Assembly (NCBI GenBank): GCA_029550925.1
Contig: JAKPGL010000210.1
Location: 1-46,013 of the forward strand
Direction of reading: 5' to 3'
DNA from: Planctomycetota bacterium
Lineage (GTDB): Bacteria > Planctomycetota > Planctomycetia > Pirellulales > Thermoguttaceae
DNA length: 46,013 nt
In this document: one piece after another, positions 1 to 45,002 of the stretch
How the letters are laid out: every line of letters starts with the position of its first letter
How positions within the stretch are numbered: position 1 is the stretch's first letter
Position numbers and translations under genes: made by a program
The notes under the pieces: generated by a model
Database searches by the model: none
What the model saw: the letters and a program-made list of their open reading frames with translations, nothing else
Told to the model about the DNA's origin: nothing

Positions 1-93
1 AGCCTTTTGCCCCCTCACCCGGCCTGCTTCGCAGGCCGGCCTCTCGACGGCCAGGGGAGAGGCGAATCTTCTCCACTCGGCTGAAATGTTATT
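1..93. repeat. Right end of an inverted-repeat element, cut by the window edge
   Basis: Bases 73-91 (CCACTCGGCTGAAATGTTA) are a variant of the right terminal repeat seen intact at 10146-10164 and 19031-19049. Inside it, bases 41-58 share the block CTCTCGACGGCCAGGGGA with the copy at 42811-43007. A GC-rich hairpin (GGCCTGC/GCAGGCC) lies at about 21-38. The left end is outside the window, so no target duplication can be checked. Assignment to the family rests on sequence similarity only. Confidence 0.6.
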
Positions 94-546: not shown

Positions 547-2040
547 ATGAAGAACCATTGGCTTGCATTGGGAATGGTGGTGGGGATGATGCTGGGGGGC
601 GTTTGCCAGGCGCAGGCGGGATTGATCGCCTATTGGCGGTTTGAGTCGGGGGCCTTTACGGTGGATAGCTCCGGCAACGGCAATGCGCTGACCAATAACC
701 ATGCTACCCAAAGCACGGATACGCCGCCTCATGTAGGCGGAAGCGGCAGCGCCTATTTCGACGGCACCGGCACCAGCGCCTTCATGCAGACCTCCGGTAA
801 CCTGAATCTCAGCCCCTACAAAAACATCGCCATCAGTTGGTGGCAAAAGGTGGATACAACCAACACGGTCCTCGTATGGGAACATTCGGCCAATTACAAT
901 AGCTATGACGGCGGGTTGAATTGCACCGTGAACGAATCGGGTTATACCCCAGCCTATGTCTGCCTGCGAAAGGCCACATCGCCGGCCGGTTATACGATGG
1001 ATACCTTCCCTTACACGAGCAATACTTGGGAACATATTACGGCGGTGATCAACCTGGGACTGCCGTCGGGAAATACCCATGAAGTGGTCAAGGTCTATCG
1101 GAACGGCGTTTTGGTAAGCAGCGACAAACTGACCACCTTGAATATACCTTCCGCCCTCCGGAACGACGTTTTGTATTTGGGGGCTCGTAGTGGAGCCACC
1201 AGTGGCCTCTTTAAAGGTTGGCTCGACGAAATGAAGATCGAGACCGTTTCGGATTATGTGAACCTGGTGGCCAATAAAACCGGTCTGGTCGGCTACTGGC
1301 GTCTGGGCGAAGGGAGCGGTACGACCGCCTGGGAAGTGCTGGGGCTAACGGGTAACGGTACTTATGTTAATGTTGCCTCGGGCGACTACGCCAAACCTGG
1401 CGCCATCCGATTCGATCCCGATACGGCCGTCCGGTTCAACGGAACTAACTCCTATGTCAACGCTGGCAATGATCCGGACCTAAACGGCAATTGGAGTGGA
1501 CTTACCGTCGCTGCCTGGGTGTATCCTGATGCTCTAAACGGCGTAAGGCTCATTGCGGGCAAATGGGCTCAAACCATTGCTCATGACCATTTCGGACTGT
1601 TCTTAAGCAACGGCAAACTACTATTCGCCGTGGCTAACGGCGCACAGGCTGAAAATGGATTTTCGTCCACTAGCTCTTTGGTAGCCAACCAATGGCAATT
1701 TGTGGTCGGCACGTGGGATGCCACCACCAATCAGTACAGCCTCTACATCAACGGAGTGCTGGATAGCACTGGCACCAGAAGTGCCACCGGCTTGAATACC
1801 AGTTCGGGCGCCCCGCTGGGTATCGGCGCTCAGATCAGCAACACAGGCAGTGTGTCTCGTTACTTCAGTGGTTTGATCGACGAAGTGGCCATTTACAATC
1901 GGGCGCTTTCTGCCCAGGAGATCTTCCAGCTTTATGCCCTGGCCACGGTGCCGGAACCGAGCACCTGGGCGCTAGCTGGCCTGGGACTGATGAGCCTGAT
2001 TGCCTTGGCCCTGCGCCGGCGACGGACTCCCGTAACCTAG
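547..2040 (+). CDS. Secreted LamG-domain protein with PEP-CTERM sorting signal
   Basis: A 497-residue exported protein. The ATG at 547 is preceded by GGGAGG about six bases upstream and opens a typical signal peptide (Lys-2, a hydrophobic stretch, and cleavage near AQA-G around residues 19-20). An in-frame start at 466 would put 27 polar residues before the signal and is rejected. Two concanavalin-like LamG/pentraxin jelly-roll domains follow, roughly residues 20-230 and 250-465; both open with the pattern 'YWRxxEG/LGEG' and end with 'GxxDEMKI' and 'GLIDEVAIYNRALS'. The C-terminus carries VPEPSTWALAGLGL, a hydrophobic helix and an Arg-rich tail, the standard PEP-CTERM signal recognised by exosortase. 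Such proteins are usually surface or extracellular-matrix carbohydrate-binding proteins; the ligand here is unknown. No exosortase gene lies in the window. Confidence 0.9.
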   Translation: MKNHWLALGMVVGMMLGGVCQAQAGLIAYWRFESGAFTVDSSGNGNALTNNHATQSTDTPPHVGGSGSAYFDGTGTSAFMQTSGNLNLSPYKNIAISWWQKVDTTNTVLVWEHSANYNSYDGGLNCTVNESGYTPAYVCLRKATSPAGYTMDTFPYTSNTWEHITAVINLGLPSGNTHEVVKVYRNGVLVSSDKLTTLNIPSALRNDVLYLGARSGATSGLFKGWLDEMKIETVSDYVNLVANKTGLVGYWRLGEGSGTTAWEVLGLTGNGTYVNVASGDYAKPGAIRFDPDTAVRFNGTNSYVNAGNDPDLNGNWSGLTVAAWVYPDALNGVRLIAGKWAQTIAHDHFGLFLSNGKLLFAVANGAQAENGFSSTSSLVANQWQFVVGTWDATTNQYSLYINGVLDSTGTRSATGLNTSSGAPLGIGAQISNTGSVSRYFSGLIDEVAIYNRALSAQEIFQLYALATVPEPSTWALAGLGLMSLIALALRRRRTPVT

Positions 2041-2176
2041 CCTGTCAGGGCTAGCCCGTAACCGGCTGGCCCGTACCCCGTACCCTAGCCTGTCTAGGCG
2101 GACCCCTAACTGGCAGGTCCGTACCCTAGCCTGTTTAGGCTGGGGGGCTAGCTGGCAGATTACCGGCTAACAGGCG
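2030..2176. repeat. Cluster of degenerate repeat units with short hairpins after the PEP-CTERM gene
   Basis: Units resembling CCGTAACCTAGCCTGTCTAGG recur at about 2030-2053, 2070-2099 and 2120-2141, with partial ones between. Each full unit contains a small hairpin such as GCCT-GTCT-AGGC (2088-2099) or AGCCT-GTTT-AGGCT (2128-2141). The first unit supplies the final codons and TAG stop of the upstream gene (GTAACC TAG). Related units lie inverted at 10184-10309. Confidence 0.65.
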
Positions 2177-9917: not shown

Positions 9918-9966
9918 TTCCCTCGGCACTCGCCGGGGATATGCACTCCAATTTGTCCAAAACGAG

Positions 9967-10174
9967 CCAGATGGTAACATTTTAGCCGAATGCAAAGGAG
10001 GCTTATTTTAGGGCGAAATTCGCCAGAATTGTCATCCCGCGAAAGCGGGAATCTGGACTTCTTGCAGCCTCTACTTGGGCAGAATAACAATGTAGTCGCC
10101 TCATAGTATCCTGGATTTCCGCTTGCGCGGGAATGACAAGGTACTGCATTCGGCTAAAATGTTAGACCAGATGG
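9967..10174. mobile_element. MITE-like element (copy A) with perfect terminal inverted repeats and target duplication
   Basis: The 19-bp ends TAACATTTTAGCCGAATGC (9975-9993) and GCATTCGGCTAAAATGTTA (10146-10164) are perfect inverted copies. The 8-mer CCAGATGG sits directly left (9967-9974) and again two bases beyond the right end (10167-10174), as expected for a target-site duplication. Inside are two inverted dRS3-like palindromes (10031-10053 and 10112-10137) around a core of about 60 bases. That core is inverted relative to the copies at 18866 and 21624. It has no coding capacity, so it would need a transposase from elsewhere. Confidence 0.8.
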
Positions 10175-10183
10175 AATTCACGG

Positions 10184-10309
10184 CGGCTCAGGCTAGACAT
10201 ACGTTACGTACGTTCGCTGTTTAGCGGGCGTCTTGTAGCGCCGCCTGTTTAGGCGGCGACGCTCAGCCTGGACAGGCTAAGTTACGGATAGCTCAGGCTA
10301 GACAGCCTA
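10184..10309. repeat. Cluster of short hairpin repeats at the 3' end of rsmA
   Basis: Hairpins CGCT-GTTT-AGCG (10215-10226), CGCCGCCT-GTTT-AGGCGGCG (10239-10258), AGCCT-GGAC-AGGCT (10265-10278) and AGGCT-AGAC-AGCCT (10295-10308) are interspersed with the word AAGTTACG. Read on the minus strand the unit is CGTAACTTAGGCTGTCTAGC, closely matching the units at 2030-2141. The last unit supplies the final codons and TAG stop of rsmA (GTA ACT TAG). Confidence 0.65.
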
Positions 10310-11212
10310 AGTTACGTGGCGGCGGATTGTCTCGGACAGTTGGAGCATTTGCTGAGGGCTGAGCGCCTCGGCCCGTTCTTGGCCGGTAAGGCCCAGCTCG
10401 GCTAGGACGGCATCCACGTCGGCCTTATCCAATCTGCCCTTCACCGCGCCGAGCAATTCCGACCGCAACAATTTGCGCCGATGTTGGAAAAGGTCCCGGA
10501 CAAACTGATGGAAGAAATCTCGATCCGGGATCTGCGCCCGTTTGGCTTCATCGGGACGGATTCGCAAAATGGCCGACGACACCTTCGGCCTGGGCCAAAA
10601 GACCTCCGGCGGCATCACCCGCACGAGTTCCACCGTGCACTGCGTCTGGACCCAGATGCTCAGGGCGCCGTAGTCTTTGGTGCTCGGCTTGGCGGTGATC
10701 CGGTCGGCCAATTCTTTCTGAATGGTAACGGTCATCAGTTGCGGCGGCCTGTCCAGAGTCAACAGGTTCGACAGGAGCGGCGTAGCGATCTGATACGGCA
10801 GGTTGGCCGCCAGTTTCCATCGCCGATTTGGCTTTTGGGCCAGATGTTTTTCCACCTCGGCCAGCATCTGCGGGTTCAATTGGCTTTTGCGGGCCAAGGC
10901 GTCCATCTGGAGCATGACTACGTTGGGGAATTGGACCAAGTGTTCGCAGGCCAAGCGATACAGGTCTTCATCGATCTCCACGGTAACGACCACCGCCGCC
11001 CGCTCCGCCAGCATAGCCGTTAGCGATCCTGCCCCTGTGCCCACCTCCAGGACCACATCGTCGGGGCCCAACTCGGCCGAATCGGCAATCAAACGGACCA
11101 GATTCAAGTCGATCAAAAAGTTTTGCCCCAACTTTTTATGCAGATCAATGCCTGCCTCGGCAAACCGCTGCCGGAGAAACGAAAGCGTCTGACGCTGTTC
11201 TGATCCTGTCAT
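10307..11212 (-). CDS. rsmA: 16S rRNA (adenine1518-N6/adenine1519-N6)-dimethyltransferase
   Basis: A 301-residue KsgA/RsmA enzyme that dimethylates two adjacent adenines in the 3' hairpin of 16S rRNA using S-adenosylmethionine. The motifs are KKLGQNFLID near the N-terminus, the SAM-binding VLEVGTGAGSLT, the acidic VEIDEDLY, and the catalytic NLPYQIATPLL (family NLPYxIxTP). A C-terminal helical domain completes the usual length. The start is ATG 11212, which has AAGGAG ten bases upstream. A longer frame from 11314 would overlap mgtE and add 34 residues with no family counterpart. It is the last gene of the minus-strand run, 83 bases after mgtE. Confidence 0.95.
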   Translation of the reverse strand: MTGSEQRQTLSFLRQRFAEAGIDLHKKLGQNFLIDLNLVRLIADSAELGPDDVVLEVGTGAGSLTAMLAERAAVVVTVEIDEDLYRLACEHLVQFPNVVMLQMDALARKSQLNPQMLAEVEKHLAQKPNRRWKLAANLPYQIATPLLSNLLTLDRPPQLMTVTIQKELADRITAKPSTKDYGALSIWVQTQCTVELVRVMPPEVFWPRPKVSSAILRIRPDEAKRAQIPDRDFFHQFVRDLFQHRRKLLRSELLGAVKGRLDKADVDAVLAELGLTGQERAEALSPQQMLQLSETIRRHVT

Positions 11213-18812: not shown

Positions 18813-18857
18813 CCGATCCGGAACCTGAGTTATCCCGGGTTTAAGATGGAGAATAAT

Positions 18858-19059
18858 TTCAGGGGTAATTATTCAGCCGGGTGCAGAAGTGCCGAGATTT
18901 TTCCGACAGAAATGTCACTGTCGCTTCAGCGGCAGTCCAGGGTCCTATGAGGCGGCTACGTTGTTATTCCTCCCAAGTAGAGGCTGCAAGAAGCCTAGAT
19001 CGGGCGCTCACGCGGCAGCGACAAAGTACTGCATTCGGCTAAAATGTTACCTTCAGGGT
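18858..19059. mobile_element. MITE-like element (copy B)
   Basis: The right end GCATTCGGCTAAAATGTTA (19031-19049) is identical to copy A. The left end TAATTATTCAGCCGGGTGC (18866-18884) matches it at 13 of 19 positions. The target duplication is TTCAGGGG on the left (18858-18865) and TTCAGGGT on the right (19052-19059), again offset two bases from the right repeat. The interior carries the same core as copy C (GGCGGCTACGTTGTTATTCC) between imperfect palindromes. It lies between the hisF promoter and the Gfo/Idh gene. Confidence 0.75.
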
Positions 19060-21597: not shown

Positions 21598-21623
21598 GGT
21601 CTTCCAGGCGGCTGCAAAATTCG

Positions 21624-21861
21624 TAACATTTTAGCCGAATGCCGAGGAGGCTGATTTTATGGCGGAAATTGCCCGGAATTGTCACTGCCGCTCTAGCGGG
21701 AATCCAGGGTCCTGTGACGCGGCTACGTTGTGATTCCTCCCAAGTAGCGGCTGCAAGAAGCCTAGATTGGGTACCTGCGCGGGAATGACATAATTTGCCG
21801 GAAAAATCTCGAGGTTTGCTAAGAAAATCCCGGCTCTTCTGCACTCGGCTGCATAATTACC
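21624..21861. mobile_element. MITE-like element (copy C)
   Basis: The left end TAACATTTTAGCCGAATGC (21624-21642) is identical to copy A. The right end GCACTCGGCTGCATAATTA (21841-21859) is diverged. It is about 236 bp, longer than A and B because of an additional segment at about 21790-21840, whose reverse complement resembles the left part of copy B and the fragment at 26870-26945. The core and dRS3-like palindromes are as in B. No clear target duplication was found, so it may be rearranged. Confidence 0.65.
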
Positions 21862-26869: not shown

Positions 26870-26945
26870 TTTTTGGTAATTATTCCGCCAAGTATCGAAG
26901 CGCCAGGATTTTCTCGGCAAAACCGGGATCTTTCCGGCAAAAAGT
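26870..26945. repeat. MITE-like fragment abutting the threonine aldolase start
   Basis: TAATTATTCCGCCAAGTAT with the following bases to GATCTTTCCGGCAAAAAG resembles the left end of copy B and the reverse complement of the right part of copy C. It begins within a few bases of the ribosome-binding site of the aldolase gene and may form its promoter region. The other end is not recognisable. Confidence 0.45.
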
Positions 26946-35675: not shown

Positions 35676-37274
35676 ATGACGCCAAAAACGCAAAAGAGCT
35701 TACTTACCCAAGTGGTACTCCTGGGACTTGGCGTGCTGGGGGTTTGGACCCAGACGCCGCCTCTGGCCGCTGCGGACCGGGAACAGTTGTGGTCGGCTGC
35801 GGAAGCCCAACGCCACGGCTTGGTTCGGGCCTGGTTTGGCCAGGTCCAGATGGACCCTGCGCGGAGCCGAGTTCAGGATCTCTGCTTGTATGAAGACATC
35901 TTCTTGGTTCAAACCGATCGGGCGATCCTCCACGCCTTCGAGGCCGAAACGGGACGGACTCAATGGGCCGTGTTGGTCGGTTCGGCGACTCGGCCTTCCC
36001 TGCAGCCGGCCATCAACTCCCAGTTGGTGGCGATTGTAAACGGATCGACCCTTTTCCTGCTAAACCGGATCGACGGAAAAATTTTGTGGAAAACCCAATT
36101 GGACGGATTTCCCGGCGCAGGGCCGACTCTAGCAAATGACCGGGTCTATGTCCCCATGTTGGAGGGACTGATTTATTCTTACCATTTGCAACCGGCCAAA
36201 GACCCCCGGGAAGCTCTTGGCGAACTGCGCGCTTCGAGTCGAAAAAAGCAGAAAGAAAGCCCAGAAGAACGTCGGACTCGTATGGCCGAACTCCGTTTAA
36301 GCCAGGAAAAGGTCCGTCCTGTGGTGTGTCAGTCTTTGGGCCACACGATGACGCCGCTTCAAGTGGGCTTCGAGGACGCCCGCGAGCAGTTGGTTGTTTG
36401 GCCTTCTCATCTGGGATATTTGTTTATTGGGGTCTTCGATAAACTGGAAGAAAAGTTGACCATTCGGCATCGGCTTCAAACGGAAAAGGCTATCTCCGCA
36501 CCGCCCGCTTATTTGCCGCCCGATCCGAAAAAACGCGCCGAGGGCGGCGTCTTTTTCACGGCCAACCACGACGGCTATGTATGGGCCATCGCGGAAAAGT
36601 CGGGCAATATCCTGTGGAAGTTTGCTACCGGGCGAACTATCGAGCGATCGCCGACGCTGATCGATGAGCAGCTTTTCGTAACGACTCTGGACGGCGGCAT
36701 GTACTGTCTGGAAGCCTCAACCGGCAAACTGATCTGGTATGTTCCCGAAGTCGTGCAATTCGTCACCGCCAGCAAAGATCGCGTCTATGCTGTAGATAAG
36801 CTCTCCCGGATCCATGTGCTCGACCGGACCAAGGGGAATCGATTGGACGCTTTCTCCGTATTGGGCCAGATCCTGCTTACTAATACGGAAAACGATCGGA
36901 TTTACATGGCCACCCCGAGCGGGCTTGTCCAATGCCTCCATGAAATCGAACTGGCCCAACCCGTCGAACATGGCGCCGCCCGCAAACCGAAGCAACAGCG
37001 CCCCGCCATCATCCAGCAAGAGGCTTTCCCCAAAACAGAAGAAAAAGAACAACCCGCTCAACCGCCCGAAGAAAAACAACCCGTTCCCAAAGCAAAAGCA
37101 AAACCAAAAGCGGAACCAGAAGAAAAACCAGAAGAAAAACTAGAAAAGAAACCAGAAGAGAAACCTGCGGGGCCGGAAGCCCAACCAGAAGAACCCGCCG
37201 AAGAAAAACCAGAGGCAAACCAAGAAAAACCTCCCGCAAAAGAAAAGGAGGCTAATAATCCTTTCCAGTTTTAG
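35676..37274 (+). CDS. Exported PQQ-type beta-propeller repeat protein with charged C-terminal tail
   Basis: 532 residues. A signal peptide spans about 1-33 (hydrophobic 9-24, cleavage near PLAAA-D). PQQ-like blades follow, with recurring 'GxxxWxxxxG' units: AETGRTQWAVLVGS, RIDGKILWKTQLDG, EKSGNILWKFATGR, ASTGKLIWYVPE. This resembles BamB or quinoprotein-like propellers, but no quinone-binding or dehydrogenase residues are recognised, so a binding role is likelier. From about residue 440 the sequence is Pro/Glu/Lys-rich low complexity (PEEKP repeats), ending in NNPFQF. AGGGG precedes the ATG by six bases. trpC follows 129 bases downstream, possibly on the same transcript. Confidence 0.88.
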   Translation: MTPKTQKSLLTQVVLLGLGVLGVWTQTPPLAAADREQLWSAAEAQRHGLVRAWFGQVQMDPARSRVQDLCLYEDIFLVQTDRAILHAFEAETGRTQWAVLVGSATRPSLQPAINSQLVAIVNGSTLFLLNRIDGKILWKTQLDGFPGAGPTLANDRVYVPMLEGLIYSYHLQPAKDPREALGELRASSRKKQKESPEERRTRMAELRLSQEKVRPVVCQSLGHTMTPLQVGFEDAREQLVVWPSHLGYLFIGVFDKLEEKLTIRHRLQTEKAISAPPAYLPPDPKKRAEGGVFFTANHDGYVWAIAEKSGNILWKFATGRTIERSPTLIDEQLFVTTLDGGMYCLEASTGKLIWYVPEVVQFVTASKDRVYAVDKLSRIHVLDRTKGNRLDAFSVLGQILLTNTENDRIYMATPSGLVQCLHEIELAQPVEHGAARKPKQQRPAIIQQEAFPKTEEKEQPAQPPEEKQPVPKAKAKPKAEPEEKPEEKLEKKPEEKPAGPEAQPEEPAEEKPEANQEKPPAKEKEANNPFQF

Positions 37275-38340: not shown

Positions 38341-38879
38341 AAGAGAGGGGTGGACTGGATGGCCGCCGGCTGAGAGGGTCAACGGGAGCTTGCTCCAATG
38401 TCTCTCTTAGCGGGAGGAAAGTCCGGGCTCCGCAGGACATGGTGGTGGGTAACACCCACCGGCTTAGGGGCCGCTCAGGTTGCCCCAAGACCAGGGAAAG
38501 TGCCACAGAAACCACACCGCCAAAGCGGGCGCAAGCCCGCATGGTAAGGGTGAAATGGTGCGGTAAGAGCGCACCGCAGGTCGGGCGACCGACCTGGCAG
38601 GGCAAACCCCACCAGGAGCAAGGTCAAGCAGGGAGCAGCGGCGGTCCAGCCCCGCCTGGACTGCCCACGGGTTGGTCCGGCCCGTTATGACTCTCGGGTG
38701 GACCGCTTGAGGGGTCGAGCAATCGACCTCCTAGAGGAATGGCCATCCACCTCGACCTATTGTTGGGCCTTATGAGCCCGCATTTAGGGCCTTTGAGAGC
38801 CCTCTGGGCCAACTTGAGCCCGTCTTTTTGTCGAGGGGACAGAACCCGGCTTACAGGTCCACTCCTCTCTATTTTTTTG
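38341..38879 (+). ncRNA. rnpB: RNase P RNA (class A) with an enlarged P19 helix
   Basis: Catalytic RNA that removes 5' leaders from pre-tRNA. P1 pairs GAGAGGGGTGGAC (38343-38355) with GTCCACTCCTCTC near 38857-38869, followed by seven T residues. P2 pairs GGATGGCC (38357-38364) with GGCCATCC (38741-38748). The P4 core is GAGGAAAGTCCGGGCTCC near 38412 with ACAGAACCCGGCTTA at 38840-38854. CCACAGAAA, GGTAAGGGTGAAA, GGTAAGAGCGCACC and GGCAAACCCC are all present. Between P2 and P4, where E. coli has a short joining strand, about 85 bases form an arm closed by CTCGAC (38751-38756)/GTCGAG (38830-38835), here read as an enlarged P19. The length is about 530 bases. Confidence 0.95.
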
Positions 38880-41626: not shown

Positions 41627-42673
41627 TCAAATCCCTCGCGCGGCGAGCCAGCGTTCGGCGTCCAGGGCGGCCATGCAGCCGGTACCCGCCGCCGTAATGG
41701 CTTGCCGATAGTAGTCGTCGCACACATCGCCGGCGGCAAACACCCCTTCCACGCTGGTATAGGTCCGGAACGGCGTTGTCCAGCGGATGTATTTTTTCTC
41801 CGTGAGTTCCAATTGCCCTTCCAGAAAGCGGGTGTTGGGCGTATGGCCGATGGCCACAAAAAGGCCCGAGACATCTACTGTCTTTTCCGGCTCGCCCACG
41901 GTGCTTCGTAGTCGGAGGCCGGTTACCCCCTCTTGGTCGTTTCCGAGAACCTCTTCGACGACTCGGTTCCAAAGGACTTGGATTTTCGGATGTTCCAAGG
42001 CCCGGCGGGTCATCACTTTGGACGCCCGCAGTTGGTCCCGGCGATGCACCAGATAGACTGTGCCGGCAAACTTGGCCATATAGACGGCTTCTTCCACAGC
42101 CGCATCCCCGCCGCCCACCACGGCGACCGGACGATTGCGAAACCGCGGCAACGCCCCGTCGCAAACTGCGCAGGCGCTGACGCCCCGGTTTTTGAACCGC
42201 TGTTCCGATTCCAGCCCCAGCCAGTTCGCCCGTGCGCCGGTGGCCACGATCACCGCCATCGCCTCCCACTGGCTGTCGTCCGAAGCCCAAAGCCGGAAAG
42301 GATACGTCTGGAAATCCACCCGTACAATGTCTTCGGTGATGACGCGGGCGCCGAAGTTTTTAGCCTGTTGCCGCATCAGTTCCATCAGTTCCGGCCCGGT
42401 GATGCAATGACCGGTCTGCGGCGGCATATATTGCCGTTTCGCCGGGTCAATGGCCGAGTCCAAATACTCCTGCAACCGACCGGCCGGAAAACCGGGATAG
42501 TTTTCTACCTCGGTCGTCAGGGCCAATTGCCCCAGGGGCAACGTGCCGGCCAGCCGGTTTTCCTCGGTTTCCGCCCCTTCAAAGACCAAAGGCTGCAATT
42601 CCGCCCGGGCTGCGTAGATGGCCGACGTCCAGGCCGCCGGACCGCTGCCGATGATAATCACCTTTTCCGCCAC
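41627..42673 (-). CDS. trxB: Thioredoxin-disulfide reductase
   Basis: A 348-residue FAD/NADPH flavoprotein. The FAD site is [20 protein letters not shown], the redox CxxC is [11 protein letters not shown], the NADPH site is [17 protein letters not shown] with [10 protein letters not shown], and FAD closure is [24 protein letters not shown]. The CxxC is Cys-Ala-Val-Cys rather than the usual Cys-Ala-Thr-Cys. About 25 extra residues lie between [11 protein letters not shown] and TGPELMELM ([20 protein letters not shown]), longer than in E. coli TrxB. The start is GTG 42673, which has GGAG eight bases upstream; an extension from 42772 is rejected. Confidence 0.95.
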
Positions 42674-42802
42674 CGAATTTTCTCCACAAAAAGGCCGATT
42701 GGCATTTCCTAACCCGCTAAAGAAACTTATTATAGAACAGAACCGGTAGCAACCCAGGGGGCATACCGACATGGTTCCGCTGACCGGATGCGGGAGAATA
42801 AG

Positions 42803-43015
42803 AATCCCCGTAACAGTTTAGCCGAATGAAGAAAGCCGCCTCTCCCCTTGTGGGAGAGGCCTGTAGGGCGTAGGCACTGCCTACGCCGAAAGCCGGGTGA
42901 GGGAGTCAACAGGCGATTGCCCCCTCCCTTTTCCCCCTCACTCCACCCTCTCGACGGCCAGGGGAGAGGGATAAGGATAGGCCTACTGCATTCAGCTAAA
43001 ATGTACCAATCCCCC
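42803..43015. mobile_element. MITE-like element (copy D) with different interior
   Basis: The left end TAACAGTTTAGCCGAATGA (42811-42829) and right end GCATTCAGCTAAAATGTA (42988-43005) match copy A. The target duplication is AATCCCCG (42803-42810) and AATCCCCC (43008-43015), with the same two-base offset at the right end as in A and B. The interior lacks the dRS3-like core. Instead it has CCTCTCCC/GGGAGAGG (42838-42858), GGCGTAGGCA/TGCCTACGCC (42867-42887) and the CTCTCGACGGCCAGGGGA block shared with the window start. It lies between trxB and cstA. Confidence 0.72.
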
Positions 43016-43073: not shown

Positions 43074-45002
43074 ATGCTCCATAATGCAATGCTGATCGCT
43101 TTGGTGTCATTGGCGGCGCTGGTGGCGGCGTATTTTACGTATGGGCGATTTTTGGCCCGACGGATATTTCGCCTGGACCCGAATCGGGCTACCCCGTCGC
43201 ATACGTTGACGGACGGGATCGACTATGTGCCCACTCGGCCGCCGATCTTGTTTGGCCATCATTTCGCCTCGATTGCCGGCCTGGGGCCGATCCTGGGGCC
43301 TGCCTTGGCGGTCATTTGGGGCTGGTTGCCGGCCTTGTTGTGGGTGGTGCTAGGGTCGATCTTTATCGGGGCGGTGCATGACATGGGGGCCTTGTATGTG
43401 AGCCTCCATCACCAAGGCCGATCCATCGGCGAAGTGAGCCGACATGTGATCGGCCCGCGCGCCCGGCTGCTCGCCCTGCTGATCATCTTCTTCATGATGT
43501 CGGTGGCAATGGGCGCCTTTTGCAGCACGCTGGCCGACCTTTTCCTCAACTACAATCCCGACGCTATAGTGCCCACCTTCGGCCTGATGCTGGTGGCGAT
43601 CGGCGTGGGGTTGGCCGTCTATCAGTTTCGGGCGCCGTTGGGCCTGACCACGGCAGCGGCTTTGGTCGTCTTTGCCGGGCTGATCCTCTACGGCATCTAT
43701 ACCCCGGTGCTCAGCTACCGATGGTTTTGTTCGGTGCAAACGCGTCAGGTGGTAGATACAGCGATTCAAGAGGCGGAAAGCTCTGCAAAACCTCCCCAGG
43801 AATCTTCCGCGGAAAATACTCCTGTTCTGAGTCGTCCGTATGGAGCGGCGGCGGTGGCCAAGTATCTGGAGGCGACCGGCCAAAAAGAGGCCCTGGCCGA
43901 TCTGGGCAGCCTGAATGATCCCCAATCCGCCCTGGGTCGGGCCAATTACGCCTGGATTGCCAGTCTATTGGCTTATGCCTTTTTGGCGTCGGTGCTGCCG
44001 GTCTGGCTCCTGTTGCAACCCCGGGACTACATCAACAGTTTTCAGCTTTATTTCATGTTGGCGGCGCTATTTATCGGGCTGATGATCGCCGGTCTGGTGG
44101 GTTCGGAGGCCAATCGGGTCGAATGCGAACCAGTGCGCGGCGAGTTGCCCGACGCCTTGCCGTGGATCCCCTTCTTGTTTGTTACCGTAGCCTGCGGCGC
44201 GGTCAGCGGCTTCCATAGCCTGGTCTCCAGCGGCACCACCGTGAAACAACTGGACCGGGAAACCCACGCCCTGCCGATCGGCTACGGCGGCATGTTGACC
44301 GAGGCGGCCTTGGCCGTCCTGGTCATCGTTGCCTGTGTGGCGGGCAATACCAAAGACTGGGGCCCGGGCGGCATCTATGCCAGTTGGTCTGGTCTTCGGG
44401 GGGCAGGACTGGCAGGCCAATTGCACGCCATGTTCCACGGCGGCTCGATGTTCCTCGAGCACCTGGGCATTCCGCCCCGGGTAGGTCAGACCTTGCTGGC
44501 TGTTACTGTGGTTGCCTTTGCACTGACCACGCTGGATTCGGCCACCCGGCTTTTACGCTTCAATGTCGAAGAGCTGTGCCGGGCGGTTCGGCTAAACTGG
44601 TTGGCCAACCGGTATGTGGGTTCGGCCGTGGCTGTGGCGGGGATCGCCTTTTTCGCCCTGGTGCCGGCCGGGCAGACGCTCTGGCGGCTTTTCGGTACCG
44701 TCAACCAAATGCTGGCCGGGCTGGCCCTGCTGGTGGTCAGTGTGTTTTTATGGAAGTTGCGTCGGCCCGTCTGGTACACCCTGCTGCCGATGATCGCCAT
44801 GTTGATCGTCTCCACCTGGGCCATGCTCCTGAGCATCCCCGGTTTCTGGAAGGACACAAAACTCTCGCCGACTCAGCAATGGGCCTTGACTATCGTCTCC
44901 GGCGTTCTGATCGCCATGGCCGGTTGGCTGGTGGTCGAAGCCCTATTGGTGTTCGCCAAAGGCCGATCCACCGGCCAGGAAACCTCCGGTTCTTCCCGAT
45001 AG
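43074..45002 (+). CDS. cstA: Carbon starvation protein CstA family transporter
   Basis: 642 residues, with about 15-16 hydrophobic helices. This family takes up peptides or pyruvate and is usually induced when carbon is short. Signature segments: GRFLARRIFRLDPNRATPSHTLTDGIDYVPTRP near the N-terminus, FGHHFASIAGLGPILGPALAVIWGWLPALLWV, GAVHDMGALYVSLHHQGRSIGEV, and the central HSLVSSGTTVKQLDRETHALPIGYGGMLTE. The insert around residues 220-275 is hydrophilic and lineage-specific. GGGAG lies about nine bases before the ATG. The leader region is MITE copy D. No regulator such as a two-component pair adjoins it. Confidence 0.95.
   Translation: MLHNAMLIALVSLAALVAAYFTYGRFLARRIFRLDPNRATPSHTLTDGIDYVPTRPPILFGHHFASIAGLGPILGPALAVIWGWLPALLWVVLGSIFIGAVHDMGALYVSLHHQGRSIGEVSRHVIGPRARLLALLIIFFMMSVAMGAFCSTLADLFLNYNPDAIVPTFGLMLVAIGVGLAVYQFRAPLGLTTAAALVVFAGLILYGIYTPVLSYRWFCSVQTRQVVDTAIQEAESSAKPPQESSAENTPVLSRPYGAAAVAKYLEATGQKEALADLGSLNDPQSALGRANYAWIASLLAYAFLASVLPVWLLLQPRDYINSFQLYFMLAALFIGLMIAGLVGSEANRVECEPVRGELPDALPWIPFLFVTVACGAVSGFHSLVSSGTTVKQLDRETHALPIGYGGMLTEAALAVLVIVACVAGNTKDWGPGGIYASWSGLRGAGLAGQLHAMFHGGSMFLEHLGIPPRVGQTLLAVTVVAFALTTLDSATRLLRFNVEELCRAVRLNWLANRYVGSAVAVAGIAFFALVPAGQTLWRLFGTVNQMLAGLALLVVSVFLWKLRRPVWYTLLPMIAMLIVSTWAMLLSIPGFWKDTKLSPTQQWALTIVSGVLIAMAGWLVVEALLVFAKGRSTGQETSGSSR

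What the first reader, a model, noticed from the sequence alone, without database searches (positions are those of the whole stretch)
9967..10174. A MITE family with 19-20 bp inverted ends and matching target duplications
Copy A has perfect 19-bp terminal inverted repeats (TAACATTTTAGCCGAATGC) and identical flanking CCAGATGG. Copies B (18858-19059) and D (42803-43015) show flanking TTCAGGG(G/T) and AATCCCC(G/C). In all three the right duplicate starts exactly two bases beyond the repeat, a consistent geometry that argues for transposition. Further ends are at 73-91, 21624-21861 and 26870-26945, so the density is high (six in 46 kb). Interiors differ, dRS3-like palindromes in some and a GGCCAGGGGA block in others, so the shared ends appear to have mobilised different contents.
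Basis: partly seen in the sequence, partly recalled or inferred. Interest (0 to 1): 0.75.

Follow-up and report, generated by a model that had tools for sequence, protein, structure and literature searches.

The report
IS66-driven mobile elements carrying palindromic repeats
These are short, gene-less jumping elements that an IS66-type transposase appears to spread through a probable planctomycete genome; the same ends enclose different, often hairpin-forming repeats in different genomes, which suggests how some orphan palindromic repeats can travel.

Summary
In the window's own genome (4.9 Mb, probably a planctomycete) the end occurs 265 times at up to 2 mismatches; the reversed control occurs 0 times. 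In 1.58 Mb read here, 98 inward-facing pairs lie under 600 bp. The element is 5'-GTAAC...GTTAC-3' and makes an 8-bp target duplication: 30 of 97 perfect (0.34 expected), 44 of 97 within one mismatch (1.08 expected). The mobiliser is very probably an IS66-family transposase: the exact 20-bp end precedes an IS66 gene in the same genome, and all four IS66 loci found carry an end of this type. Copy D's site looks empty, by spacer length, in both congeners; four other testable sites gave no clear answer. Interiors are modular: two left ends, CGTC/dRS3-like palindromes, a core in either orientation. Pairs of these ends in seven other genomes (13 pairs, 7 with perfect duplications) enclose mostly different interiors, 9 of 13 significantly self-complementary. 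No convergent-gene bias was seen. New variant of a known kind; transposition itself is inferred.

The parts
9974..10165 (.). Copy A, class I element (192 bp): LE1 end, two CGTC/dRS3-like palindromes, core in the less common orientation, RE end
   Evidence: folds at -89.1 kcal/mol, z -8.91
9966..9973 (.). Left copy of the target duplication of A (GCCAGATG)
10166..10173 (.). Right copy of the target duplication of A (ACCAGATG)
18865..19050 (+). Copy B, class I element with the alternative left end LE2 (186 bp)
18857..18864 (.). Left copy of the target duplication of B (TTTCAGGG)
19051..19058 (.). Right copy of the target duplication of B (CTTCAGGG)
21623..21860 (.). Hybrid element with LE1 on the left and LE2 on the right, no RE (238 bp); no recognisable duplication
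42810..43006 (.). Copy D, class II element (197 bp) with CTCTCCCC-type palindromes, between divergent genes 41627-42772 (-) and 43074-45002 (+)
   Evidence: site looks empty in G001 and G002 by length; fold z -4.60
42802..42809 (.). Left copy of the target duplication of D (GAATCCCC)
   Evidence: read by eye
43007..43014 (.). Right copy of the target duplication of D (CAATCCCC), assuming one T lost from the end of the element
   Evidence: read by eye
1..92 (.). Right part of a class II-like element cut off by the contig start
26876..26943 (+). Decayed solo LE2-type end without core or partner
   Evidence: read by eye; not found by the 4-mismatch scan

Best explanation
These are MITEs: non-coding elements, mostly 160-240 bp, that an IS66-family DDE transposase moves in trans by recognising their 20-bp ends (5'-GTAACATTTTAGCCGAATGC and the related 5'-GTAATTATTCAGCCGAGTGC), leaving 8-bp target duplications. 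Shown: the ends, their inward pairing, the 8-bp duplications, matching ends on the IS66 loci of the same genome, one site empty by length. Inferred: that this transposase does the moving; that ends are interchangeable (LE1-RE, LE2-RE and one LE1-LE2 hybrid have copies with perfect duplications); that contents do not matter to it. In this genome the contents are CGTC/dRS3-like palindromes around a core, or CTCTCCCC-type palindromes; in other genomes the same ends enclose other, often self-complementary sequences. Inverted cores and swapped ends are most simply explained by recombination or template switching at the palindromic arms (inference). The copies lie mostly between genes without preference for any gene arrangement, so I read them as selfish elements.
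For: 265 ends at up to 2 mismatches, 0 reversed controls. 98 inward pairs against 12 outward and 11 same-direction neighbours under 600 bp; 30 of 97 perfect 8-bp duplications, 0.34 expected; 44 of 97 within one mismatch, 1.08 expected. PF03050 matches at C224, C232 and C4 and an internally deleted copy at C149; exact 20-bp end at C224 and C149, 3 mismatches at C232, 1 mismatch to the LE2 end at C4. The C224 gene can start at a GTG 89 bp from the outer edge of the end; the protein passes the NCBIfam IS66 cut-off, 196.5 against 180 bits. LE2 and the C4 IS66 end align over about 48 bp in 15 LE2 elements. GTAAC-type ends with an 8-bp duplication are reported for ISDge4, IS66 family, ISBst12 group (passages of PMC12898284). 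Copy D: spacer 318 bp here, 113 bp in G001; the difference of 205 is the 197-bp element plus 8; in G002 313 against 105. Perfect 8-bp duplications at 7 of 13 pairs in other genomes.
Against: No intact IS66 gene is assembled: C224 runs off its contig, C232 holds only a 3' part, C149 and C4 are internally deleted. 53 of 97 duplications differ at two or more bases. Empty sites: A (spacers 399 and 373), L082:9959, L082:11003 and L066:7808 gave no element-sized difference; B and 21623-21860 had no usable counterpart. The junction at D cannot be placed to the base. C232 and C224 flanks do not form a duplication, so they may be different copies.
Confidence: 0.9

Rival explanations
1. They are MITEs, but the active mobiliser is another transposase family with similar ends, and the IS66 copies are passengers or relics.
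For: No intact IS66 copy is assembled; two of the four IS66 loci are internally deleted.
Against: All four IS66 loci found carry an end of this type; GTAA ends and 8-bp duplications are reported for IS66 elements (passages of PMC12898284 and PMC12888890; 8 bp also in the table of PMC3281130). Other transposase families of this genome were not searched for these ends.
Confidence: 0.06
2. The elements are kept as transcription terminators or RNA-processing hairpins of the host.
For: Copies A and D fold strongly as RNA (z -8.91 and -4.60), and 48 of 97 interiors have z below -3 against 9 of 98 control spacers.
Against: No excess between convergent genes: 42 tandem, 34 divergent, 11 convergent against spacer lengths of 151, 81 and 34 kb (chi-square about 3.3 on 2 d.f., my arithmetic). 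Target duplications show insertion. Individual copies may still act this way.
Confidence: 0.03
3. The palindromes are REP elements moved by a tyrosine (RAYT) transposase, and the shared ends are incidental.
For: CGTC/dRS3-like palindromes also occur away from ends (12 of 79 in the sample) and in G017 without any end at one mismatch.
Against: No Y1_Tnp (PF01797) match in this genome at E 0.001, and the 8-bp duplications lie at the ends, not at the palindromes.
Confidence: 0.02

Closest known systems
IS66 family, ISBst12 group (e.g. ISDge4)
   Same: GTAAC-type ends resembling GTGACTACTCAGCA/GTAACTGCTCAGCA, 8-bp duplication, one transposase gene (passages of PMC12898284)
   Different: The elements here have no gene; the donor IS in this genome is known only in pieces
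IS66 elements with passenger genes (tIS66, e.g. ISPa75 with fosZ)
   Same: IS66 ends carrying foreign cargo (passages of PMC12888890)
   Different: There the cargo is a gene beside a transposase; here it is palindromic repeats without one
CGTC-1 repeats, called dRS3 in Neisseria
   Same: TGTC head, 8-bp stem starting AT/GC-type, 4-base loop, CC tail; several stem variants (section 6 of PMC3733652)
   Different: Here pairs of units face tail to tail around a core inside a transposon-like element with target duplications; the paper finds mostly head-to-head dimers and no dedicated transposase
Other bacterial MITEs (e.g. MITEPsy1, MITEPsy3)
   Same: Short, gene-less, terminal repeats shared with an IS, up to about 100 copies (passages of PMC3189936 and PMC6053426)
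   Different: Those are linked by their authors to IS5- or IS630-type elements, with a 4-bp duplication for MITEPsy1

Membership tests
MITE | Short element with terminal inverted repeats and target duplications | tested here: met
   98 pairs; 30 of 97 perfect and 44 of 97 within one mismatch over 8 bp
MITE | No coding capacity | tested here: met
   87 of 92 classifiable copies wholly outside called genes, 5 overlap a called gene in part (home-made gene caller)
MITE | Ends shared with an autonomous element of the same genome | tested here: met
   Exact or near ends at four IS66 loci; none of the four is a complete copy
IS66 family (as mobiliser) | Ends starting 5'-GTAA and 8-bp duplication | tested here: met
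   criterion from passages of PMC12898284, PMC12888890, PMC3281130 and recall
IS66 family (as mobiliser) | Transposase with DDE_Tnp_IS66 domain beside such an end | tested here: met
   the zf-IS66 match of the C224 protein is below its cut-off, that of the G067 relative above it
IS66 family (as mobiliser) | Demonstrated movement of the elements by this transposase | not testable with these tools
   -
ISBst12 group | Single transposase gene, no tnpA/tnpB | tested here: inconclusive
   Only 69 bp between the end and a GTG start at C224 and under 80 bp between stop and end at C232, which leaves no room; but no complete copy was seen
CGTC-1/dRS3 palindromes (contents of class I) | TGTC head, 8-bp stem, 4-base loop, CC tail | tested here: met
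   63 places fit the scaffold in the sample, 41 of them with fully paired variable stem bases: TTC/GAA 31, CTG/CAG 6, TCC/GGA 4
REP/RAYT system | Y1 tyrosine transposase in the genome | tested here: not met
   PF01797: 0 matches in this genome, found in 5 of 14 control genomes

The most novel reading that the evidence does not exclude
IS66-type ends repeatedly capture whichever palindromic repeat is common in a planctomycete genome and so act as a general DDE-transposase vehicle for repeats that lack a transposase of their own, CGTC/dRS3-like palindromes among them; palindromic contents may help by bringing the two ends together, and recombination at the palindromes keeps shuffling ends and cores. 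For: the same ends with perfect 8-bp duplications around unrelated interiors in L031, L033, G034 and G047; z below -3 in 9 of 13 such interiors and 48 of 97 here, against 9 of 98 control spacers; 44 of 79 palindromes of the sample inside elements covering 1.2% of it. Against: G017 has 156 palindromes and no end at one mismatch; the sample was chosen around ends; copies of the foreign interiors away from ends were few in the little DNA available (5 of 17 and 1 of 4 matches in G034, 1 of 2 in G047, 0 of 3 and 0 of 2 in L032-L033 and L031).
Probability: 0.35. Interest if true: 0.65.

Novelty: new variant of a known kind. Interest (0 to 1): 0.45.

Why it matters
MITEs tied to the IS66 family did not turn up in the paper searches made here, and a survey of palindromic repeats left open what moves CGTC (dRS3-like) palindromes (passages of PMC3733652). 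Here such palindromes sit inside elements with transposon ends and target duplications, in a genome with matching transposase genes, and the same ends hold other, often palindromic sequences in other genomes. That is a testable route for the spread of repeats without a tyrosine transposase, and a natural system for asking whether a transposase tolerates mixed ends and hairpin cargo.

Tried and rejected
Terminator role as main driver: no convergent bias. RAYT route: no Y1 gene. A 7-bp duplication or a two-base offset: the scan over lengths 4-12 and offsets 0-3 puts the optimum at 8 bp, one base outside the 19-mer; among the 14 one-mismatch duplications the mismatch position is spread, not fixed to the first base. 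Free mobility of the core: 72 of 75 core matches lie in pairs or near an end. Exact 19-mer in genome contigs: 5 loci, where about 2 are expected by chance (my arithmetic), so the solo hits L034 and L035 (a Bacteroidetes bin) may be chance; the pairs in L031 and L033 are not. Viral contigs: none. Empty sites other than D: not resolvable. A fuzzy-regex classification timed out and was redone by local alignment. Structure prediction and fold search were not used.

Full report
Observation. The window is contig C31 of a 4.9-Mb genome in 233 contigs; there the end occurs 135 + 130 times at up to 2 mismatches and the reversed control never. Four of the five named records with an exact match are planctomycete bins, one is a Bacteroidetes bin, so I take the genome to be a planctomycete, by inference.

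Boundaries. I read 1.58 Mb of this genome: 106 stretches, the window included, many chosen around listed ends, so not a random sample. There are 98 inward-facing pairs under 600 bp, against 12 outward and 11 same-direction neighbours. Among 97 usable pairs 93 have G before TAAC and 90 have C after GTTA, and the flanks then repeat over 8 bp: 30 of 97 perfect and 44 of 97 within one mismatch, against 0.34 and 1.08 when right flanks are dealt out anew; 53 of 97 differ at two or more bases. The targets are A/T-rich. One locus may be counted twice (L039 and L090 share a right flank, 39 of 40 bases).

Anatomy. 81 of 98 interiors form one cluster (class I), 11 another (class II), 6 stand alone. The commonest class I element is 196 bp: a left end LE1 or LE2, a CGTC/dRS3-like palindrome, a core, a second palindrome facing the other way, and a right end RE. 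By local alignment 58 of 81 have LE1, 15 LE2 and 8 neither; the core lies in one orientation in 50, in the other in 13, and is different or unassigned in 18. A 162-163-bp subfamily has another core. Elements with a left end on both sides exist (window 21623-21860, and L080:3462-3697, the latter with a perfect duplication). Duplications within one mismatch: LE1 31 of 58, LE2 6 of 15, neither 2 of 7, class II 4 of 11, others 1 of 6. Nearest-neighbour identity among 29 canonical LE1 copies has a median of 0.89 and a maximum of 0.93, so these are not very recent copies. Palindrome stems covary: TTC/GAA 31, CTG/CAG 6, TCC/GGA 4, and 22 not fully paired, of 63.

Mobiliser. The IS66 profile PF03050 has three matches in the genome (C224, C232, C4); a protein search adds an internally deleted copy at C149. 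C224 carries the exact 20-bp end, with a possible GTG start 89 bp from its outer edge, and an open IS66 frame that runs off the contig. C149 carries the exact end; C232 holds the 3' part of a gene and an end with 3 mismatches; C4 has an LE2-type end with 1 mismatch, which aligns with the LE2 elements over about 48 bp. The C224 protein passes the NCBIfam IS66 cut-off. So LE1/RE and LE2 trace to two IS66 lineages. Relatives of this protein were found in 11 of 119 genomes of the family including this one; copies in G067, G133, G099 and G066 (41-82% identical) have an end of this kind nearby at 4-6 mismatches of 20, while of four more distant ones (27-30% identical) three have none and one has a weak match (a lenient scan).

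Empty sites. In G001 the spacer between the matches flanking D is 113 bp against 318 here; the difference, 205, equals the 197-bp element plus 8. In G002 it is 105 against 313, a difference of 208. The spacer is too diverged to place the junction to the base. Four other sites with both flanks on one contig of a congener gave no such difference: A 399 against 373; L082:9959 526 against 173 and 521 against 355; L082:11003 412 against 379; L066:7808 761 against 211 and 736 against 476. B and 21623-21860 had no usable counterpart.

Distribution. At one mismatch the end is found in 6 of 60 genomes including this one, with 3 and 1 in the two congeners. The 196-bp consensus finds only partial pieces, 71-90% identical, in the congeners, but only 20 of their 149 and 125 candidates were scored, so diverged relatives there may be many; close copies are few. 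The palindrome is found at one mismatch in 7 of 60 genomes: 144 here, 99 and 73 in the congeners, 156 in G017 (which has no end at one mismatch), 1-2 in three others; G034 has ends and no palindrome. Ends and palindromes are therefore separable. In the sample 44 of 79 palindromes are inside pairs that cover 1.2% of the sequence, 23 more lie within 250 bp of an end and 12 are away. Of 21 matches to the class II interior of D, 7 lie away from ends.

Other genomes. At up to 5 mismatches of 20, 13 pairs were found in 20 loci from other genomes, all loci chosen for holding an end; 7 have perfect 8-bp duplications (L031 twice, L033, L116, L117, L119, L129) and 6 do not. By eye, the interiors in L031, L033, G034, G005 and G047 are unlike those of the window, and that of L123 (a congener) resembles class II. 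z is below -3 in 9 of 13, against 48 of 97 interiors here and 9 of 98 control spacers.

Function. 87 of 92 classifiable copies are wholly intergenic and 5 overlap a called gene in part; 42 tandem, 34 divergent, 11 convergent against spacer lengths of 151, 81 and 34 kb. I see no terminator-like bias and prefer a selfish reading.

Literature. Searches for IS66 with MITE or 'miniature inverted', ISBst12 with MITE, IS66 with 'non-autonomous' and for the end itself (one unrelated plant-virus paper) showed no report of this family or of IS66-derived MITEs in this open library. I saw listings, and passages of PMC3281130, PMC3189936, PMC12888890, PMC12898284, PMC2246112, PMC9208149, PMC9769881, PMC6053426, PMC5665950 and PMC6807381; of PMC3733652 passages and sections 6 and 7. 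The rest of the listed papers were not opened, and most subscription papers are not held, so this is weak evidence of novelty. PMC3733652 says that CGTC repeats apparently lack a dedicated transposase, and mentions REP dimers embedded in longer palindromes in two other species, the nearest precedent I saw.

Noticed in passing
L067:8887-9016, L096:1692-1821, L073:6993-7122, L075:18355-18484, L086:3008-3135 and others: A second short element family of about 130 bp with ends CTGGAGTTTTGCAAA: 64 ends at up to 3 mismatches in the 1.58-Mb sample against 1 for the reversed control, 23 inward pairs of 127-145 bp. Some lie inside ends or interiors of the IS66-type elements. By eye duplications of 6-7 bp.
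   Followed up: partly
window 38347-38869: The bacterial RNase P RNA match spans 523 bases for a model of 367 positions, so it holds about 150 bases of extra sequence.
   Followed up: no
window 2030-2140 and about 10186-10320: Clusters of another short repeat, CCGTA(A/C)CCTAGCCTGTC... and its reverse complement, one of them just right of copy A.
   Followed up: no
window 37072-37228: A 12-base repeat in the gene 35676-37274, 8 copies in register of a 52-base unit as listed.
   Followed up: no
   Followed up: no
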